DNA of 64,000 bases, taken from an uncultured Bacteroidales bacterium (GTDB lineage Bacteria; Bacteroidota; Bacteroidia; Bacteroidales; FEN-979). The notes beneath the pieces were generated by a model. It had not been told where the DNA came from. It worked only from the letters and a program-made list of their open reading frames with translations, and did no database searches. Of this stretch, positions 22,126-30,053 are shown piece after piece. The translations under genes were made by a program, and so were the position numbers. The stretch covers positions 186,001 through 250,000 of the forward strand of contig CAISRB010000012.1 of NCBI GenBank assembly GCA_903887775.1. The letters run 5' to 3'. Every line of letters starts with the position of its first letter. Positions within the stretch are counted from its first letter, which is position 1.

Positions 22126-23022
22126 TCAGAGAGTAGGTTTGTCATTGTTACCTGTAAACTTGATCATAATCAATTCCCAGACAGCATAGAAATAATGAGC
22201 CCATACACCGGCAAGCATGATGATCAGGGTTACGATCATCCACAGGGGTGCGATCGGTGTCCAGAGTTCGCGTGAAGGTACTTCTGCCTTATAATATTGC
22301 TTTGGCACACCCCAGTTAATTGTTGAAGTGCCCTGTACAAATCCGTACTTTTCATTTTCCTCTATTTTGGCGATGATATTAAGATTTCCCAGGGTGTCGC
22401 CTACGATGTTGTTGGGAAATTCAAAACTACCTTTACCCTGGTCATCCAGAGAAACTTCTCCAATTTTCAGAAGGCTGAAAAGCCGGGGAACATACAGTAT
22501 AACGGTTTCCTTGGCAAGGGCAACTTCCTGTCCTTTTGAGTCCTCTCGGGTCCCGGTCAGATTCAGATACCGGATTGAATCCTGCACATTAAAAGACATC
22601 CGGAGTTTTGCGGGTTCTGCGCTGAAATCAGCAGAAACCTCACTGTATTTCAGAGTCCCGGAAAATTTCGCCTGATATGAGATAATCCCTTCCTTACCGG
22701 GCTGAAGTTTATTGATTGCAACCCTCAGCACTGCATTGCCATCCTGATCTGTTATGGCTGTTCCCAAAGAAAGGAGTTTATTATCCCTGGCCGAGAAGAA
22801 TTCAATCGTTGCATTTTTCAATCCGTAAGTGTCACTCTCCCTTTTAACGAACAGATTTGCTGTAAGGCAAACCGAATCATTGGAAGTGCATAAATACGAA
22901 AAAGTAATTTTGGACTGCTGGACTGAATTGCTGTCAGTTTTTTCCTGGGCATGAAGAATTGAAGGGACGAGCAGTGTTATTATCAGCGCCTCGACAATAA
23001 TCCTGTATATATTTCTTTTCAT
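22126..23022 (-). CDS. Exported, C-terminally membrane-anchored Ig-like protein of the respiratory cluster
   Basis: Signal peptide, beta-rich region, C-terminal TM IAPLWMIVTLIIMLAGVWAHYFYAVWELI; 11 nt downstream of the NrfD-like gene. Confidence 0.65.
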   Translation of the reverse strand: MKRNIYRIIVEALIITLLVPSILHAQEKTDSNSVQQSKITFSYLCTSNDSVCLTANLFVKRESDTYGLKNATIEFFSARDNKLLSLGTAITDQDGNAVLRVAINKLQPGKEGIISYQAKFSGTLKYSEVSADFSAEPAKLRMSFNVQDSIRYLNLTGTREDSKGQEVALAKETVILYVPRLFSLLKIGEVSLDDQGKGSFEFPNNIVGDTLGNLNIIAKIEENEKYGFVQGTSTINWGVPKQYYKAEVPSRELWTPIAPLWMIVTLIIMLAGVWAHYFYAVWELIMIKFTGNNDKPTL

Positions 23023-23033
23023 TTGTTAATGAT

Positions 23034-24347
23034 TTATATTAAAACGTCCTCTGGTTTGGTTTCCTGAACATTGCCGGATACGGTGACAATAGGGATGAAT
23101 TTCGAGGCTATCGTGAAGAGCAGGCAGAAAAGGGCTACACCGGCAGCGGTAAGGCTCCATTCAACCCAGGTTGAGGAATAAATGCTCCATTCGGGCCGCG
23201 AATCCTGTATCGGAAGATAAGGCGATTGCAGGGTGGGAATAACAATCAGGTATCTGTTCAGCCAGAGAGCGATAATAACAACAACAGCAGTCAGTGTAAT
23301 ATTTGTGATGGTCCGCAATTTTGCTATTCCAACAACCAGTAAGGGTAATAGCACGCCGACGTAATTTGAAATGATAAATGGCCAGTAGAATTCTTTAAAC
23401 AGGAGCTGGATCAGGAGCTCGTCATTTTTTTCTGAACCATACCATTTGGTAAGGTAGTCACTGAACGTAAAATAACCGAAAAATGCTGCCAGTACCAGCA
23501 TAATAACACCAACAGATATAAAATGTTTCTTCGTAATATACTGTTCAAGGTGGTAGACTTTCCTGAAAAACCACATGGCTACAATAAGCACTGCACTCCC
23601 TGAATACACTGCAGCAATGACGAAATAGGGGCCGAAAATAGTACTGTGCCATCCCGGCTGAAGGGTCACGCTGAAGATCCATGCCAATACAGAGTACACA
23701 ATGATAGCGATGGCAATGACCATGGTTGCCATAATATTTGTAGCTCTGTCAAGACGTTTCTTTTGATCTTCTGTCCCGGTATACCCAAGGGCAAGAACCC
23801 TGTACAGCTTTTTTCTCCATTTGGGGAGTTGCAGCTCTTCGAAATCCCTCATGTTTGCAAGATCCCTGAGGACAGCCAGGTACAGGAAGATAAGGCAGCC
23901 GAAGATATCGGTGGAGATCGCTATAACGTCCCAGGTGATTGGGGATTGGATACGTCCGTGCAGTATAAGATAATGCAGTTTATCGAGCCTGCCGATGCAA
24001 AGCAGGATATAACAGGGACCGATCAGAAGGGAAATAATGGTAATGAATTCCGCCATTCTGATAACAGGTTTTCTCCATGCAGTCCTGAATAAATGCAAGG
24101 TCCCCGAAATAAGGGCACCTGCATAACTGACCCCCATGAAAAATATGAAATTCACGATGTAAATACCCCAGACAACATTATCGCGCATACCCGTTACGAC
24201 ATGTCCTTTTGTCACCTGCTGAATGAAAGCAAACACGCCTAATCCGATAACTGAAAGCAGGAAAAGGATCCAGATATATCCCTGGACCCCCGTTCTTTCG
24301 ATCTGCGGGGCAAACTCCTTCAGTAATTGTTTTTCATTGTTTTCCAT
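23034..24347 (-). CDS. NrfD/PsrC/HmcC-like integral membrane quinol-interacting protein
   Basis: 437 aa, ~10 TM helices; VVWGIYIVNFIFFMGVSYAGALISGTLHLFRTAWRKPVIRMAE, typical NrfD/PsrC. Confidence 0.88.
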   Translation of the reverse strand: MENNEKQLLKEFAPQIERTGVQGYIWILFLLSVIGLGVFAFIQQVTKGHVVTGMRDNVVWGIYIVNFIFFMGVSYAGALISGTLHLFRTAWRKPVIRMAEFITIISLLIGPCYILLCIGRLDKLHYLILHGRIQSPITWDVIAISTDIFGCLIFLYLAVLRDLANMRDFEELQLPKWRKKLYRVLALGYTGTEDQKKRLDRATNIMATMVIAIAIIVYSVLAWIFSVTLQPGWHSTIFGPYFVIAAVYSGSAVLIVAMWFFRKVYHLEQYITKKHFISVGVIMLVLAAFFGYFTFSDYLTKWYGSEKNDELLIQLLFKEFYWPFIISNYVGVLLPLLVVGIAKLRTITNITLTAVVVIIALWLNRYLIVIPTLQSPYLPIQDSRPEWSIYSSTWVEWSLTAAGVALFCLLFTIASKFIPIVTVSGNVQETKPEDVLI

Positions 24348-24349
24348 GG

Positions 24350-28860: not shown

Positions 28861-28913
28861 TTTTAAATATTTGTTGTTAGTAATGAGGATTAAGCAATAT
28901 TTACATTTTTATG

Positions 28914-28953
28914 AAAAAAGGCTTCAGGATTGTTATATCCTGAAGCCTTTTTT
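28914..28953 (-). terminator. Strong terminator after the hexaheme gene (can fold on either strand)
   Basis: AAAAAAGGCTTCAGGA - TTGTTATA - TCCTGAAGCCTTTTTT. Confidence 0.88.
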
Positions 28954-28970
28954 GATAATGGTTACAAGAA

Positions 28971-30053
28971 TTATGGTAATGAATTCATGTAAGTAATCCC
29001 GGCATCCAGCATATCCCTGATATATGCGAAATTGTGAACACCCATACTGCGGTCAGCATCAACCAAACAGAAGTTCCAGTAAACTGCTAACTGAATCTGT
29101 GTGAATTTTTTGGGTTTTGTTGCACTCATGGGTCCTTTCAGAAGCATAGTGTTAGTATCAAGAACCTTTTTCTGTGCCAATAAAACCTTAAGCTGCTGGT
29201 ACTTGCCTTCAATCGTAGTTTGAGCTCCATTAAGGTCGAAGGTAGTGCCGATTGCAGTATGGCATGGCCTGCAAACTGCGACATTATCACCTGTTTCCGT
29301 GCTGGACATCGTAAGGGTGTGACCGCCAACAGCTTCGCCCTGTGCAGGACCCATATGGCAGTTCCTGCAGCTCACATTGCCTTTATGATTCGTGCTGGCA
29401 AAAGCTGAAGCTCCCATTTCGAAAGCGCCTTTCCCGGCGAGCATCAGGAACTGGGGCCCGTGATGCGGTCCCCAACGGGTGCTTGTAACTCCTACAGAGT
29501 CGGTTCCTTTGGGATTGGTGATCCAGGGGCTGGCTAATCTTGCCTGGTGGCATTTACCGCAAAGGTTTGAAGTGCCGTCGGTACCTCCGGGAATCGTAAC
29601 GGTAAGGTCAATAGATGAAGTTGTATCAATATAAGGATGAACAGGCTCAATATCTCTCAATGCCCAGTCAGTCGGGGAATACGTATTGTGAATTAAATGA
29701 CAGGTGCGGCAGTTGATCGGGGCAGCGTCATTATATGCCTGTGTAACGGTAGAACCGGTCTGCAGTTTTTCAAGGAAACCTTCGTGACTATGGCATCCGG
29801 AACATCCAGAACGGGCAGCTTCAATGATTGTGCTTGCCGATGCATGCTTTGAAGCATCATACTGGAAAATTTTAACAATTACGGTGTCCCCGAAATTATG
29901 GCAGTTGGTGCAGGTTGCATTGGCATCCTTGCCATTTGTTCCGTTGGGGCCGGCCGGGCCCTGGGGTCCTTCCTTTGTACAACCGATAAAGATAAGACCG
30001 GAAACCGCCATAACCATGATCCCAGACAGAACTAACAAGAGTAATTTTTTCAT
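28971..30053 (-). CDS. Hexaheme c-type cytochrome, lipoprotein-like, with short collagen-like stretch
   Basis: MKKLLLLVLSGIMVMAVSGLIFIGCTKEGPQGPAGPNGTNGKDANATCTNCH; CXXCH x6: CTNCH, CSGCH, CRTCH, CGKCH, CRNCH, CRPCH; ORF opens at 30125, Met at 30053 starts the signal peptide. Confidence 0.9.
   Translation of the reverse strand: MKKLLLLVLSGIMVMAVSGLIFIGCTKEGPQGPAGPNGTNGKDANATCTNCHNFGDTVIVKIFQYDASKHASASTIIEAARSGCSGCHSHEGFLEKLQTGSTVTQAYNDAAPINCRTCHLIHNTYSPTDWALRDIEPVHPYIDTTSSIDLTVTIPGGTDGTSNLCGKCHQARLASPWITNPKGTDSVGVTSTRWGPHHGPQFLMLAGKGAFEMGASAFASTNHKGNVSCRNCHMGPAQGEAVGGHTLTMSSTETGDNVAVCRPCHTAIGTTFDLNGAQTTIEGKYQQLKVLLAQKKVLDTNTMLLKGPMSATKPKKFTQIQLAVYWNFCLVDADRSMGVHNFAYIRDMLDAGITYMNSLP

What the first reader, a model, noticed from the sequence alone, without database searches (positions are those of the whole stretch)
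22126..30053. Multiheme/NrfD/FeS/outer-membrane respiratory cluster with no recognisable catalytic subunit
In one direction the window encodes: 6-heme c lipoprotein, CXCH lipoprotein, DUF5777-like beta-barrel, monoheme c, 7-heme c anchored by two TM, cytochrome b, Tat 4x[4Fe-4S] protein, NrfD/PsrC-like protein and an exported TM-anchored Ig-like protein. That is 14 canonical c-hemes (7+1+6). The parts resemble Hmc/Dsr/Qrc-type quinone-linked modules, but I see no molybdopterin, DsrAB, hydrogenase or other terminal enzyme. The combination with an outer-membrane protein and two exported heme-type lipoproteins suggests quinone-pool to cell-surface or periplasmic electron transfer. The physiological role is inference.
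Basis: partly seen in the sequence, partly recalled or inferred. Interest (0 to 1): 0.8.

Follow-up and report, generated by a model that had tools for sequence, protein, structure and literature searches.

The report
Bacteroidales quinol-to-outer-membrane electron export cluster
A conserved set of neighbouring genes in uncultured lake and sediment Bacteroidales seems to build a wire that carries respiratory electrons from the inner membrane to the outer membrane or cell surface, which would make 'breathing' of external materials directly testable in a group where it is barely studied.

Summary
The genes are all there. 14 CXXCH hemes are confirmed (7+1+6), plus a monoheme lipoprotein whose motif is CXCH here and CX2-4CH in relatives. 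The order crp/fnr, hexaheme lipoprotein, monoheme lipoprotein, DUF5777 barrel, monoheme c, heptaheme c, cytochrome b, FeS, NrfD, Ig recurs in dozens of Bacteroidales loci. It is a stack of modules, not one complex. (1) Heptaheme c plus diheme cytochrome b: a split CbcL-type quinol dehydrogenase, fused into one protein in a relative. (2) FeS-NrfD-Ig: NrfD nearest ActC of alternative complex III, with FeS cysteines predicting 3[4Fe-4S]+1[3Fe-4S]. It is lost cleanly in two relatives; another copy in this genome sits directly upstream of a cytochrome oxidase. (3) An outer side of hexaheme lipoprotein plus monoheme lipoprotein/12-strand barrel; Kapabacteria carry a single fused heme-barrel protein in that slot. 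Some relatives add a textbook ImcH. Invariant histidines match every multiheme CXXCH, so none is an open catalytic heme: the missing catalytic subunit looks intrinsic. Best reading: menaquinol-linked electron export to the outer membrane or surface (about 0.6). Surface location, acceptor and direction are inferred. It is a new variant of known EET modules.

The parts
30261..30956 (-). Crp/Fnr-family regulator; HCADCSC N-terminus, Cys11/14/111 conserved in 41-42 of 43 homologues
   Evidence: Pfam cNMP_binding + HTH_Crp_2; Cys conservation; upstream of the cluster in most loci
30207..30220 (-). FNR-like palindrome TTGATAAATGTCAA upstream of the hexaheme gene
   Evidence: Same TTGA-N6-TCAA palindrome in 20 of 25 crp-to-hexaheme intergenic regions; in the window alone not above chance
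28971..30053 (-). Hexaheme c lipoprotein (c6h); 6 CXXCH plus 6 other invariant His; CTKEGPQGP lipobox and collagen-like linker; C-terminal part related to the NrfA/octaheme superfamily
   Evidence: always six heme motifs in the slot, allowing one CX4CH
28914..28953 (-). Terminator-like hairpin AAAAAAGGCTTCAGGAT..ATCCTGAAGCCTTTTTT after c6h
   Evidence: 17-pair stem; same GGCTTCAG/CTGAAGCC hairpin in most relatives
28501..28860 (-). Monoheme c lipoprotein with CXCH motif (CX2CH/CX3CH/CX4CH in relatives) and conserved Met
   Evidence: NCBIfam NF047812 32.8 bits, below cutoff 100
27528..28487 (-). DUF5777 outer-membrane beta-barrel, about 12 strands predicted
   Evidence: PF19089 210.8 bits; AlphaFold2 pLDDT 80; Foldseek FapF/OmpG-type barrels, E 7.5e-7, TM 0.45
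27072..27491 (-). Class I monoheme cytochrome c (periplasmic shuttle)
   Evidence: PF13442/PF00034; fused to the Ig domain in the oxidase-linked paralogous cluster
27008..27049 (-). Terminator-like hairpin after the monoheme c gene
   Evidence: 19-pair stem; comparable hairpin in about half of the relatives
25950..26966 (-). Heptaheme c, N- and C-terminal TM helices; 7 CXXCH plus 7 invariant distal His plus an invariant His329 in the C-terminal TM helix
   Evidence: fused to cytochrome b in L103
25333..25947 (-). Diheme cytochrome b (PhsC/HydC/FdnI type), 4 TM, invariant His19/54/168/182
   Evidence: PF01292, PRK15006 177 bits, alignment, TM scan
24350..25315 (-). Tat-exported ferredoxin subunit, 15 conserved cluster Cys (3x[4Fe-4S] + 1x[3Fe-4S] predicted)
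23034..24347 (-). NrfD-like quinone-site membrane subunit, nearest ActC of alternative complex III
   Evidence: PF03916; PDB 6f0k_C E 4.9e-53
22126..23022 (-). Exported Ig-like protein with C-terminal TM anchor; subunit of the NrfD module
   Evidence: Fused to NrfD in paralog L063 (746 aa; Big_3_5 33.3 bits, cutoff 35.5) and to monoheme c in paralog L064

Best explanation
The cluster encodes an anaerobically regulated menaquinol-to-outer-membrane electron export chain. Menaquinol is oxidised at two inner-membrane modules. One is a split CbcL-type dehydrogenase: diheme cytochrome b plus membrane-anchored heptaheme c. The other is a reduced, ACIII-like FeS-NrfD-Ig module. Electrons pass to the class I monoheme cytochrome c in the periplasm, then to a monoheme lipoprotein paired with a small DUF5777 barrel in the outer membrane, and finally to the hexaheme lipoprotein at or near the cell surface, which hands them to an external acceptor such as Fe(III), humics, an electrode or a partner cell. 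Shown here: gene content, conservation, module fusions, matched axial histidines, absence of a predicted open multiheme site, conserved regulatory palindrome. Inferred: order of electron flow past the heptaheme, surface exposure, direction outwards, and the nature of the acceptor.
For: Conserved order in dozens of loci. Heptaheme c and cytochrome b are one protein in L103 (554 aa, 7 CXXCH in the N-half and b-type TM domain in the C-half): the CbcL architecture described in PMC6295460. CbcL and ImcH are the inner-membrane quinol-side cytochromes for extracellular respiration in Geobacter (PMC5585712). Several relatives place an ImcH in the same operon (L081, L082, L046, L048, L053); it has 496-500 aa, 3 TM, one CX3CH and six CX2CH, the ImcH signature of PMC6295460. 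In Kapabacteria the same order holds: hexaheme, fused monoheme-barrel protein, Rieske, monoheme, 13-heme, cytochrome b (L105; L107 with cytochrome b fused to ImcH). NrfD and FeS: nearest ActC; 15-Cys pattern predicting a [3Fe-4S] cluster as in ActB and QrcC; another FeS-NrfD-(monoheme::Ig) copy in this genome lies directly upstream of SCO1 and cytochrome oxidase, so the module is a quinol:cytochrome c oxidoreductase by context. Histidine bookkeeping gives bis-His ligation for all 13 multiheme hemes. Conservation falls from inner membrane outwards: NrfD/FeS 82%, monoheme c 68, c7h/cytb 64, DUF5777 51, lipoprotein 41, hexaheme 32. FNR-like palindrome.
Against: No surface-location evidence beyond a lipobox. 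The DUF5777 barrel has about 12 strands, against 26 in MtrB, too small to hold a multiheme wire, and shows no detectable homology to the Kapabacteria fused barrel. No MtrB homologue in the genome. No direct comparison with Geobacter CbcL or ImcH sequences was possible. The hexaheme model is poor (pLDDT 56). Most organisms are MAGs without physiology.
Confidence: 0.6

Rival explanations
1. Electron uptake: the outer part takes electrons from an extracellular donor (Fe(II), reduced humics, a partner cell) and the CbcL/NrfD-type modules reduce menaquinone, as proposed for MtoC and as in Qrc.
For: CbcL/MtrH/MtoC homologues occur in both Fe(III) reducers and Fe(II) oxidisers (PMC6295460). The small monoheme barrel slot recalls the monoheme porin Cyc2 (PMC8406198). 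Qrc runs in the quinone-reducing direction (PMC13059093, abstract).
Against: Kapabacteria fused barrel lacks the Cyc2 AXPXFAR[Q/K][T/Y] motif. ImcH, reported only from reducers (PMC6295460), accompanies the cluster in relatives. The FNR-like box suggests anaerobic induction. The FeS-NrfD paralogue next to an oxidase points to quinol oxidation.
Confidence: 0.15
2. Periplasmic hub: the modules oxidise quinol and load monoheme c for soluble terminal enzymes encoded elsewhere (CCP-type peroxidase, NrfA), and the outer-membrane genes serve another purpose.
For: The genome has one CCP/MauG protein and NrfHA in the same window. FeS-NrfD-Ig-monoheme modules exist without outer-membrane partners (L063, L067). 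In L103 the c7h::cytb fusion stands next to an OTR-like octaheme cytochrome.
Against: NrfA has its own NrfH. The outer part (hexaheme, lipoprotein, DUF5777) stays when NrfD is lost (L087, L088) and is colinear in Kapabacteria.
Confidence: 0.15
3. The hexaheme lipoprotein is itself a reductase for a small molecule, being distantly related to the NrfA/octaheme superfamily.
For: Profile matches to NrfA, octaheme nitrite reductase and multiheme cytochrome 6qvm C-terminal regions.
Against: Only the C-terminal part matches. There is no CXXCK motif, and six invariant non-motif His match six hemes, so no open site is predicted.
Confidence: 0.1

Closest known systems
CbcL/MtrH/MtoC inner-membrane quinol oxidoreductases (Geobacter EET)
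   Same: Multiheme c domain plus HydC/FdnI-type diheme b membrane domain; fused into one polypeptide in relative L103
   Different: Split into two genes here, 7 hemes instead of 9, extra C-terminal TM with an invariant His on the heptaheme subunit
ImcH (NapC/NirT-type heptaheme, Geobacter)
   Same: Relatives carry an ImcH with exact hallmarks in the operon; this genome has one on another contig (L077)
   Different: Not part of the window's own cluster
Alternative complex III (ActABCDEF)
   Same: NrfD nearest ActC; FeS subunit with the 15-Cys pattern expected for a [3Fe-4S] cluster; monoheme c partner
   Different: No molybdopterin-like ActB1 domain, no second NrfD (ActF); Ig-like subunit instead
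QrcABCD, HmcABCDEF, NhcABCD, DsrMKJOP
   Same: NrfD plus ferredoxin plus multiheme c, quinone-linked, no substrate enzyme required in Qrc/Hmc/Nhc
   Different: Equivalog models below cutoff, no QrcB or DsrK gene, linked to outer-membrane genes
Porin-cytochrome conduits (MtrCAB, OmbB/OmaB/OmcB) and Cyc2
   Same: Outer-membrane barrel encoded with a c-type cytochrome; Cyc2 likewise has one heme per barrel
   Different: About 12 strands predicted, separate monoheme lipoprotein, no sequence homology found, no MtrB in the genome

Membership tests
CbcL/MtrH/MtoC | Multiple CX2CH motifs followed by a HydC/FdnI-like diheme b membrane domain | tested here: met
   c7h 7 CX2CH; cytb PF01292, TIGR02125/TIGR01583 hits below cutoff, four invariant His
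CbcL/MtrH/MtoC | Both parts on a single polypeptide | tested here: not met
   Two genes 2 bp apart in the window; single 554-aa protein in relative L103
CbcL/MtrH/MtoC | Sequence homology to Geobacter CbcL | not tested
   CbcL sequence not fetched; NCBIfam has no CbcL hit
ImcH (operon member in relatives, C7 copy in this genome; not in the window) | 3 N-terminal TM, one CX3CH, six CX2CH, 495-519 aa | tested here: met
   definition from PMC6295460. The C7 copy (L077) is longer, 551 aa, with the ORF start unrefined
Alternative complex III | ActC-type NrfD | tested here: met
   6f0k_C best PDB hit, E 4.9e-53
Alternative complex III | ActB with molybdopterin-like B1 domain and second NrfD ActF in the cluster | tested here: not met
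   No such ORFs; the only PF00384 hit in the genome is on C27
Alternative complex III / Qrc | One [3Fe-4S] plus three [4Fe-4S] in the ferredoxin subunit | tested here: met
   By cysteine pattern only: Ala98 in 48 of 49 homologues, 15 cluster Cys; cluster content of ActB/QrcC from PMC8076601 Table 1
QrcABCD | QrcD/QrcC equivalogs and QrcB | tested here: not met
   QrcD 38/570, QrcC 115/400 bits; no QrcB-like ORF
DsrMKJOP | DsrP/DsrO equivalogs and DsrK | tested here: not met
   DsrP 85/350, DsrO 165/200 bits; no DsrK-like ORF
Hmc | HmcA hexadecaheme and HmcB | tested here: not met
   HmcB 73.6/420 bits; largest cytochrome has 7 hemes
MtrCAB-type porin-cytochrome complex | MtrB/PioB barrel (26 strands) | tested here: not met
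   No PF11854 match in the genome; DUF5777 about 12 strands
Cyc2 | Fused cytochrome-porin, 16 strands, AXPXFAR[Q/K][T/Y] motif | tested here: not met
   Window proteins separate, about 12 strands; Kapabacteria protein is fused but has ARPQYSILQ in place of the motif
EET pathway (functional class) | Electron transfer to an extracellular acceptor | not testable with these tools
   Needs culture or reconstitution

The most novel reading that the evidence does not exclude
The monoheme lipoprotein (CX1-4CH) and the 12-strand DUF5777 barrel form a previously unrecognised minimal two-part outer-membrane electron conduit, replaced by a single fused heme-barrel protein in Kapabacteria, and fed by alternative quinol modules (CbcL-like, ACIII-like, ImcH) stacked in one locus as potential-dependent entry points.
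Probability: 0.25. Interest if true: 0.8.

Novelty: new variant of a known kind. Interest (0 to 1): 0.6.

Why it matters
Extracellular electron transfer is known mostly from Geobacter and Shewanella; in Bacteroidales it has rested on scattered cytochrome counts. This cluster gives a named, conserved and testable pathway with defined entry modules, and natural deletion and fusion variants that show which parts work together. It also explains why no catalytic subunit is found, and it assigns a context to DUF5777 and to a monoheme lipoprotein with unusual heme-motif spacing. In Geobacter different inner-membrane cytochromes serve acceptors of different potential; here several such entry modules share a locus.

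Tried and rejected
Hmc, Dsr, Qrc, Nrf and CISM membership: equivalog scores below cutoff, mostly far below. L064 was first read as a classic ACIII next to the oxidase and rejected: the 830-aa upstream protein is DUF5686 and the cluster is FeS-NrfD-(monoheme::Ig)-SCO1-COX. The 499-aa h6 protein in relatives was first suspected to be NrfA or octaheme tetrathionate reductase; it is ImcH/NapC type. Homology of DUF5777 to the Kapabacteria fused barrel: none detected (hhalign probability 8%). The riboflavin kinase at 21707-22102 was considered as a flavin-shuttle member and rejected: two family members without an NrfD match also have a standalone copy (G013 and G014). AlphaFold2 model of c6h too poor for a fold search. 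Paper searches for DUF5777 with cytochrome and for Kapabacteria with EET gave nothing.
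Full report
Observation. The nine genes lie on the minus strand at 22126-30053, preceded by a Crp/Fnr gene (30261-30956). Heme motifs: heptaheme c 7, monoheme c 1, hexaheme lipoprotein 6 CXXCH, and one CXCH in the small lipoprotein. Pfam and NCBIfam assign NrfD, Tat ferredoxin, Ni_hydr_CYTB/PhsC-type cytochrome b, cytochrome c3/c7 domains, class I cytochrome c and DUF5777.

Conservation. Loci from the genome search and the search for related loci carry the same order. 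Adjacency counts over the loci held: FeS-NrfD 50, lipoprotein-DUF5777 46, NrfD-Ig 43, c7h-cytb 40, DUF5777-c1h 39, c1h-c7h 39, cytb-FeS 36, c6h-lipoprotein 31. Most loci were fetched by NrfD, so frequencies involving NrfD are biased upwards. Median identity to the window in family relatives falls from NrfD/FeS 82% over c1h 68, cytb 64, c7h 64, DUF5777 51 and lipoprotein 41 to c6h 32: the presumed outermost part varies most, and yet the c6h slot keeps six heme motifs, allowing one CX4CH in many.

It is modular. In L088 (same genus) and L087 (same family) the locus is complete except for FeS-NrfD-Ig, which is cleanly missing between cytb and the riboflavin kinase; the cytochrome b tree places these as separate losses inside triad-bearing groups. 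L079 and L083 also lack the triad. Fusions tie parts together: c7h::cytb, 554 aa, in L103; NrfD::Ig, 746 aa, in this genome's contig C17; monoheme c::Ig, 299 aa, in contig C27; cytb::ImcH, 737 aa, in L107.

Module 1, heptaheme c plus cytochrome b. Seven CXXCH and seven invariant non-motif His (99, 117, 156, 173, 221, 230, 251), plus His329 in the C-terminal TM helix; cytochrome b has four invariant His and four TM helices. This is the CbcL/MtrH/MtoC plan as described in PMC6295460, split into two genes. A direct comparison with Geobacter CbcL was not made.

Module 2, FeS-NrfD-Ig. NrfD's best solved relatives are ActC subunits of alternative complex III (6f0k_C, E 4.9e-53), with DsrP and QrcD models far below cutoff. 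The ferredoxin has 15 conserved cluster cysteines, Ala98 replacing the second Cys of motif I in 48 of 49 homologues, which predicts one [3Fe-4S] and three [4Fe-4S] clusters, as listed for ActB and QrcC in PMC8076601. Contig C27 of the same genome encodes FeS-NrfD-(monoheme::Ig)-SCO1-COX1-COX3-COX2, so the module is by context a quinol:cytochrome c oxidoreductase. PMC3534657 describes NrfCD pairs without a molybdenum subunit as quinol donors to periplasmic multiheme cytochromes in Melioribacter.

Module 3, the outer side. c6h is a lipoprotein (CTKEGPQGP) with six CXXCH and six other invariant His (70, 122, 197, 223, 245, 340), so no open heme is predicted although its C-terminal part is related to the NrfA/octaheme superfamily. 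DUF5777 is predicted as a barrel of about 12 strands (FapF/OmpG-like by Foldseek). The lipoprotein-DUF5777 pair recurs, and a second DUF5777 in this genome (C15) also stands beside monoheme lipoproteins, with an OB-fold protein and YceI. In Kapabacteria (named so) the slot between c6h and the monoheme c holds one protein with an N-terminal CXXCH and a barrel-like remainder ending in FY, plus a Rieske protein. No sequence homology to DUF5777 was found, so the equivalence is positional only.

ImcH. In L081, L082, L046, L048, L053 and others the operon carries a 496-500-aa protein with three TM helices, one CX3CH and six CX2CH, the ImcH definition of PMC6295460. This genome has one on contig C7 (L077).

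Regulation. TTGA-N6-TCAA palindromes occur in 20 of 25 crp-to-c6h intergenic regions, although one match in the window alone is not above chance. The Crp/Fnr proteins keep Cys11, 14 and 111, suggesting but not proving an Fe-S O2 sensor. Terminator-like hairpins after c6h (most relatives) and after c1h (about half) suggest three transcription units: c6h; lipoprotein-DUF5777-c1h; c7h to Ig.

What is absent. In this genome: one PF00384 protein (C27), no NosZ, one CCP/MauG, one COX1, NrfHA at 54118-56274 with its own NrfH, no MtrB. The absence of a catalytic subunit therefore looks like a property of the system. L103, where the fused module stands beside an OTR-like octaheme cytochrome, shows that the inner module can be re-used with a terminal enzyme.

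Mechanism and limits. Most likely, menaquinol electrons enter through modules 1 and 2, pass through c1h, and leave through lipoprotein/DUF5777 and c6h. Direction outwards is favoured by ImcH company, the oxidase-linked paralogue and the FNR-like box; electron uptake is not excluded because CbcL-type proteins work in both directions. He and colleagues (PMC6344600) reported putative, uncharacterised porin-cytochrome genes in Bacteroidetes of a humic lake; several of the present loci also come from stratified lakes, but whether they are the same genes was not tested.

Novelty. The individual modules are known kinds. The split CbcL plus ACIII-like triad plus hexaheme and DUF5777 combination was not found in the papers searched, which cover open-access text only.

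Noticed in passing
28501-28860: Heme-attachment motif is CXCH in the window and in five same-genus relatives (L026-L029, L088), while family relatives have CX2CH, CX3CH or CX4CH at the same place; natural CXCH would be unusual.
   Followed up: partly
54118-56274: NrfH and NrfA (ammonia-forming nitrite reductase) in the same window, separate from the cluster.
   Followed up: partly
L064 (G000:C27) 8752-16391: FeS-NrfD-(monoheme c::Ig fusion)-SCO1-COX1-COX3-COX2::cytochrome c: an ACIII-like quinol:cytochrome c module without ActB1 or ActF next to a cytochrome oxidase.
   Followed up: partly
L063 (G000:C17) 8732-14196: Crp/Fnr, FeS, NrfD::Ig fusion, monoheme c and a polytopic membrane protein (weak DUF2339): another copy of the NrfD module, without multiheme partners.
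   Followed up: partly
L078 (G000:C15) 7943-11062: Second DUF5777 with two monoheme-type lipoproteins, an OB-fold protein and YceI.
   Followed up: partly
21707-22102: Standalone riboflavin kinase directly downstream; the genome also has a full-length RibF (C11); standalone copies also occur in relatives without an NrfD match.
   Followed up: yes
L105, L107: Kapabacteria monoheme-barrel fusion family (about 400 aa) with no Pfam or NCBIfam match, next to a Rieske protein and hexaheme and 13-heme cytochromes.
   Followed up: partly
L103 9180-13019: c7h::cytb fusion followed by an octaheme cytochrome weakly related to the tetrathionate reductase family (TIGR04315 70.6 bits, cutoff 375).
   Followed up: no
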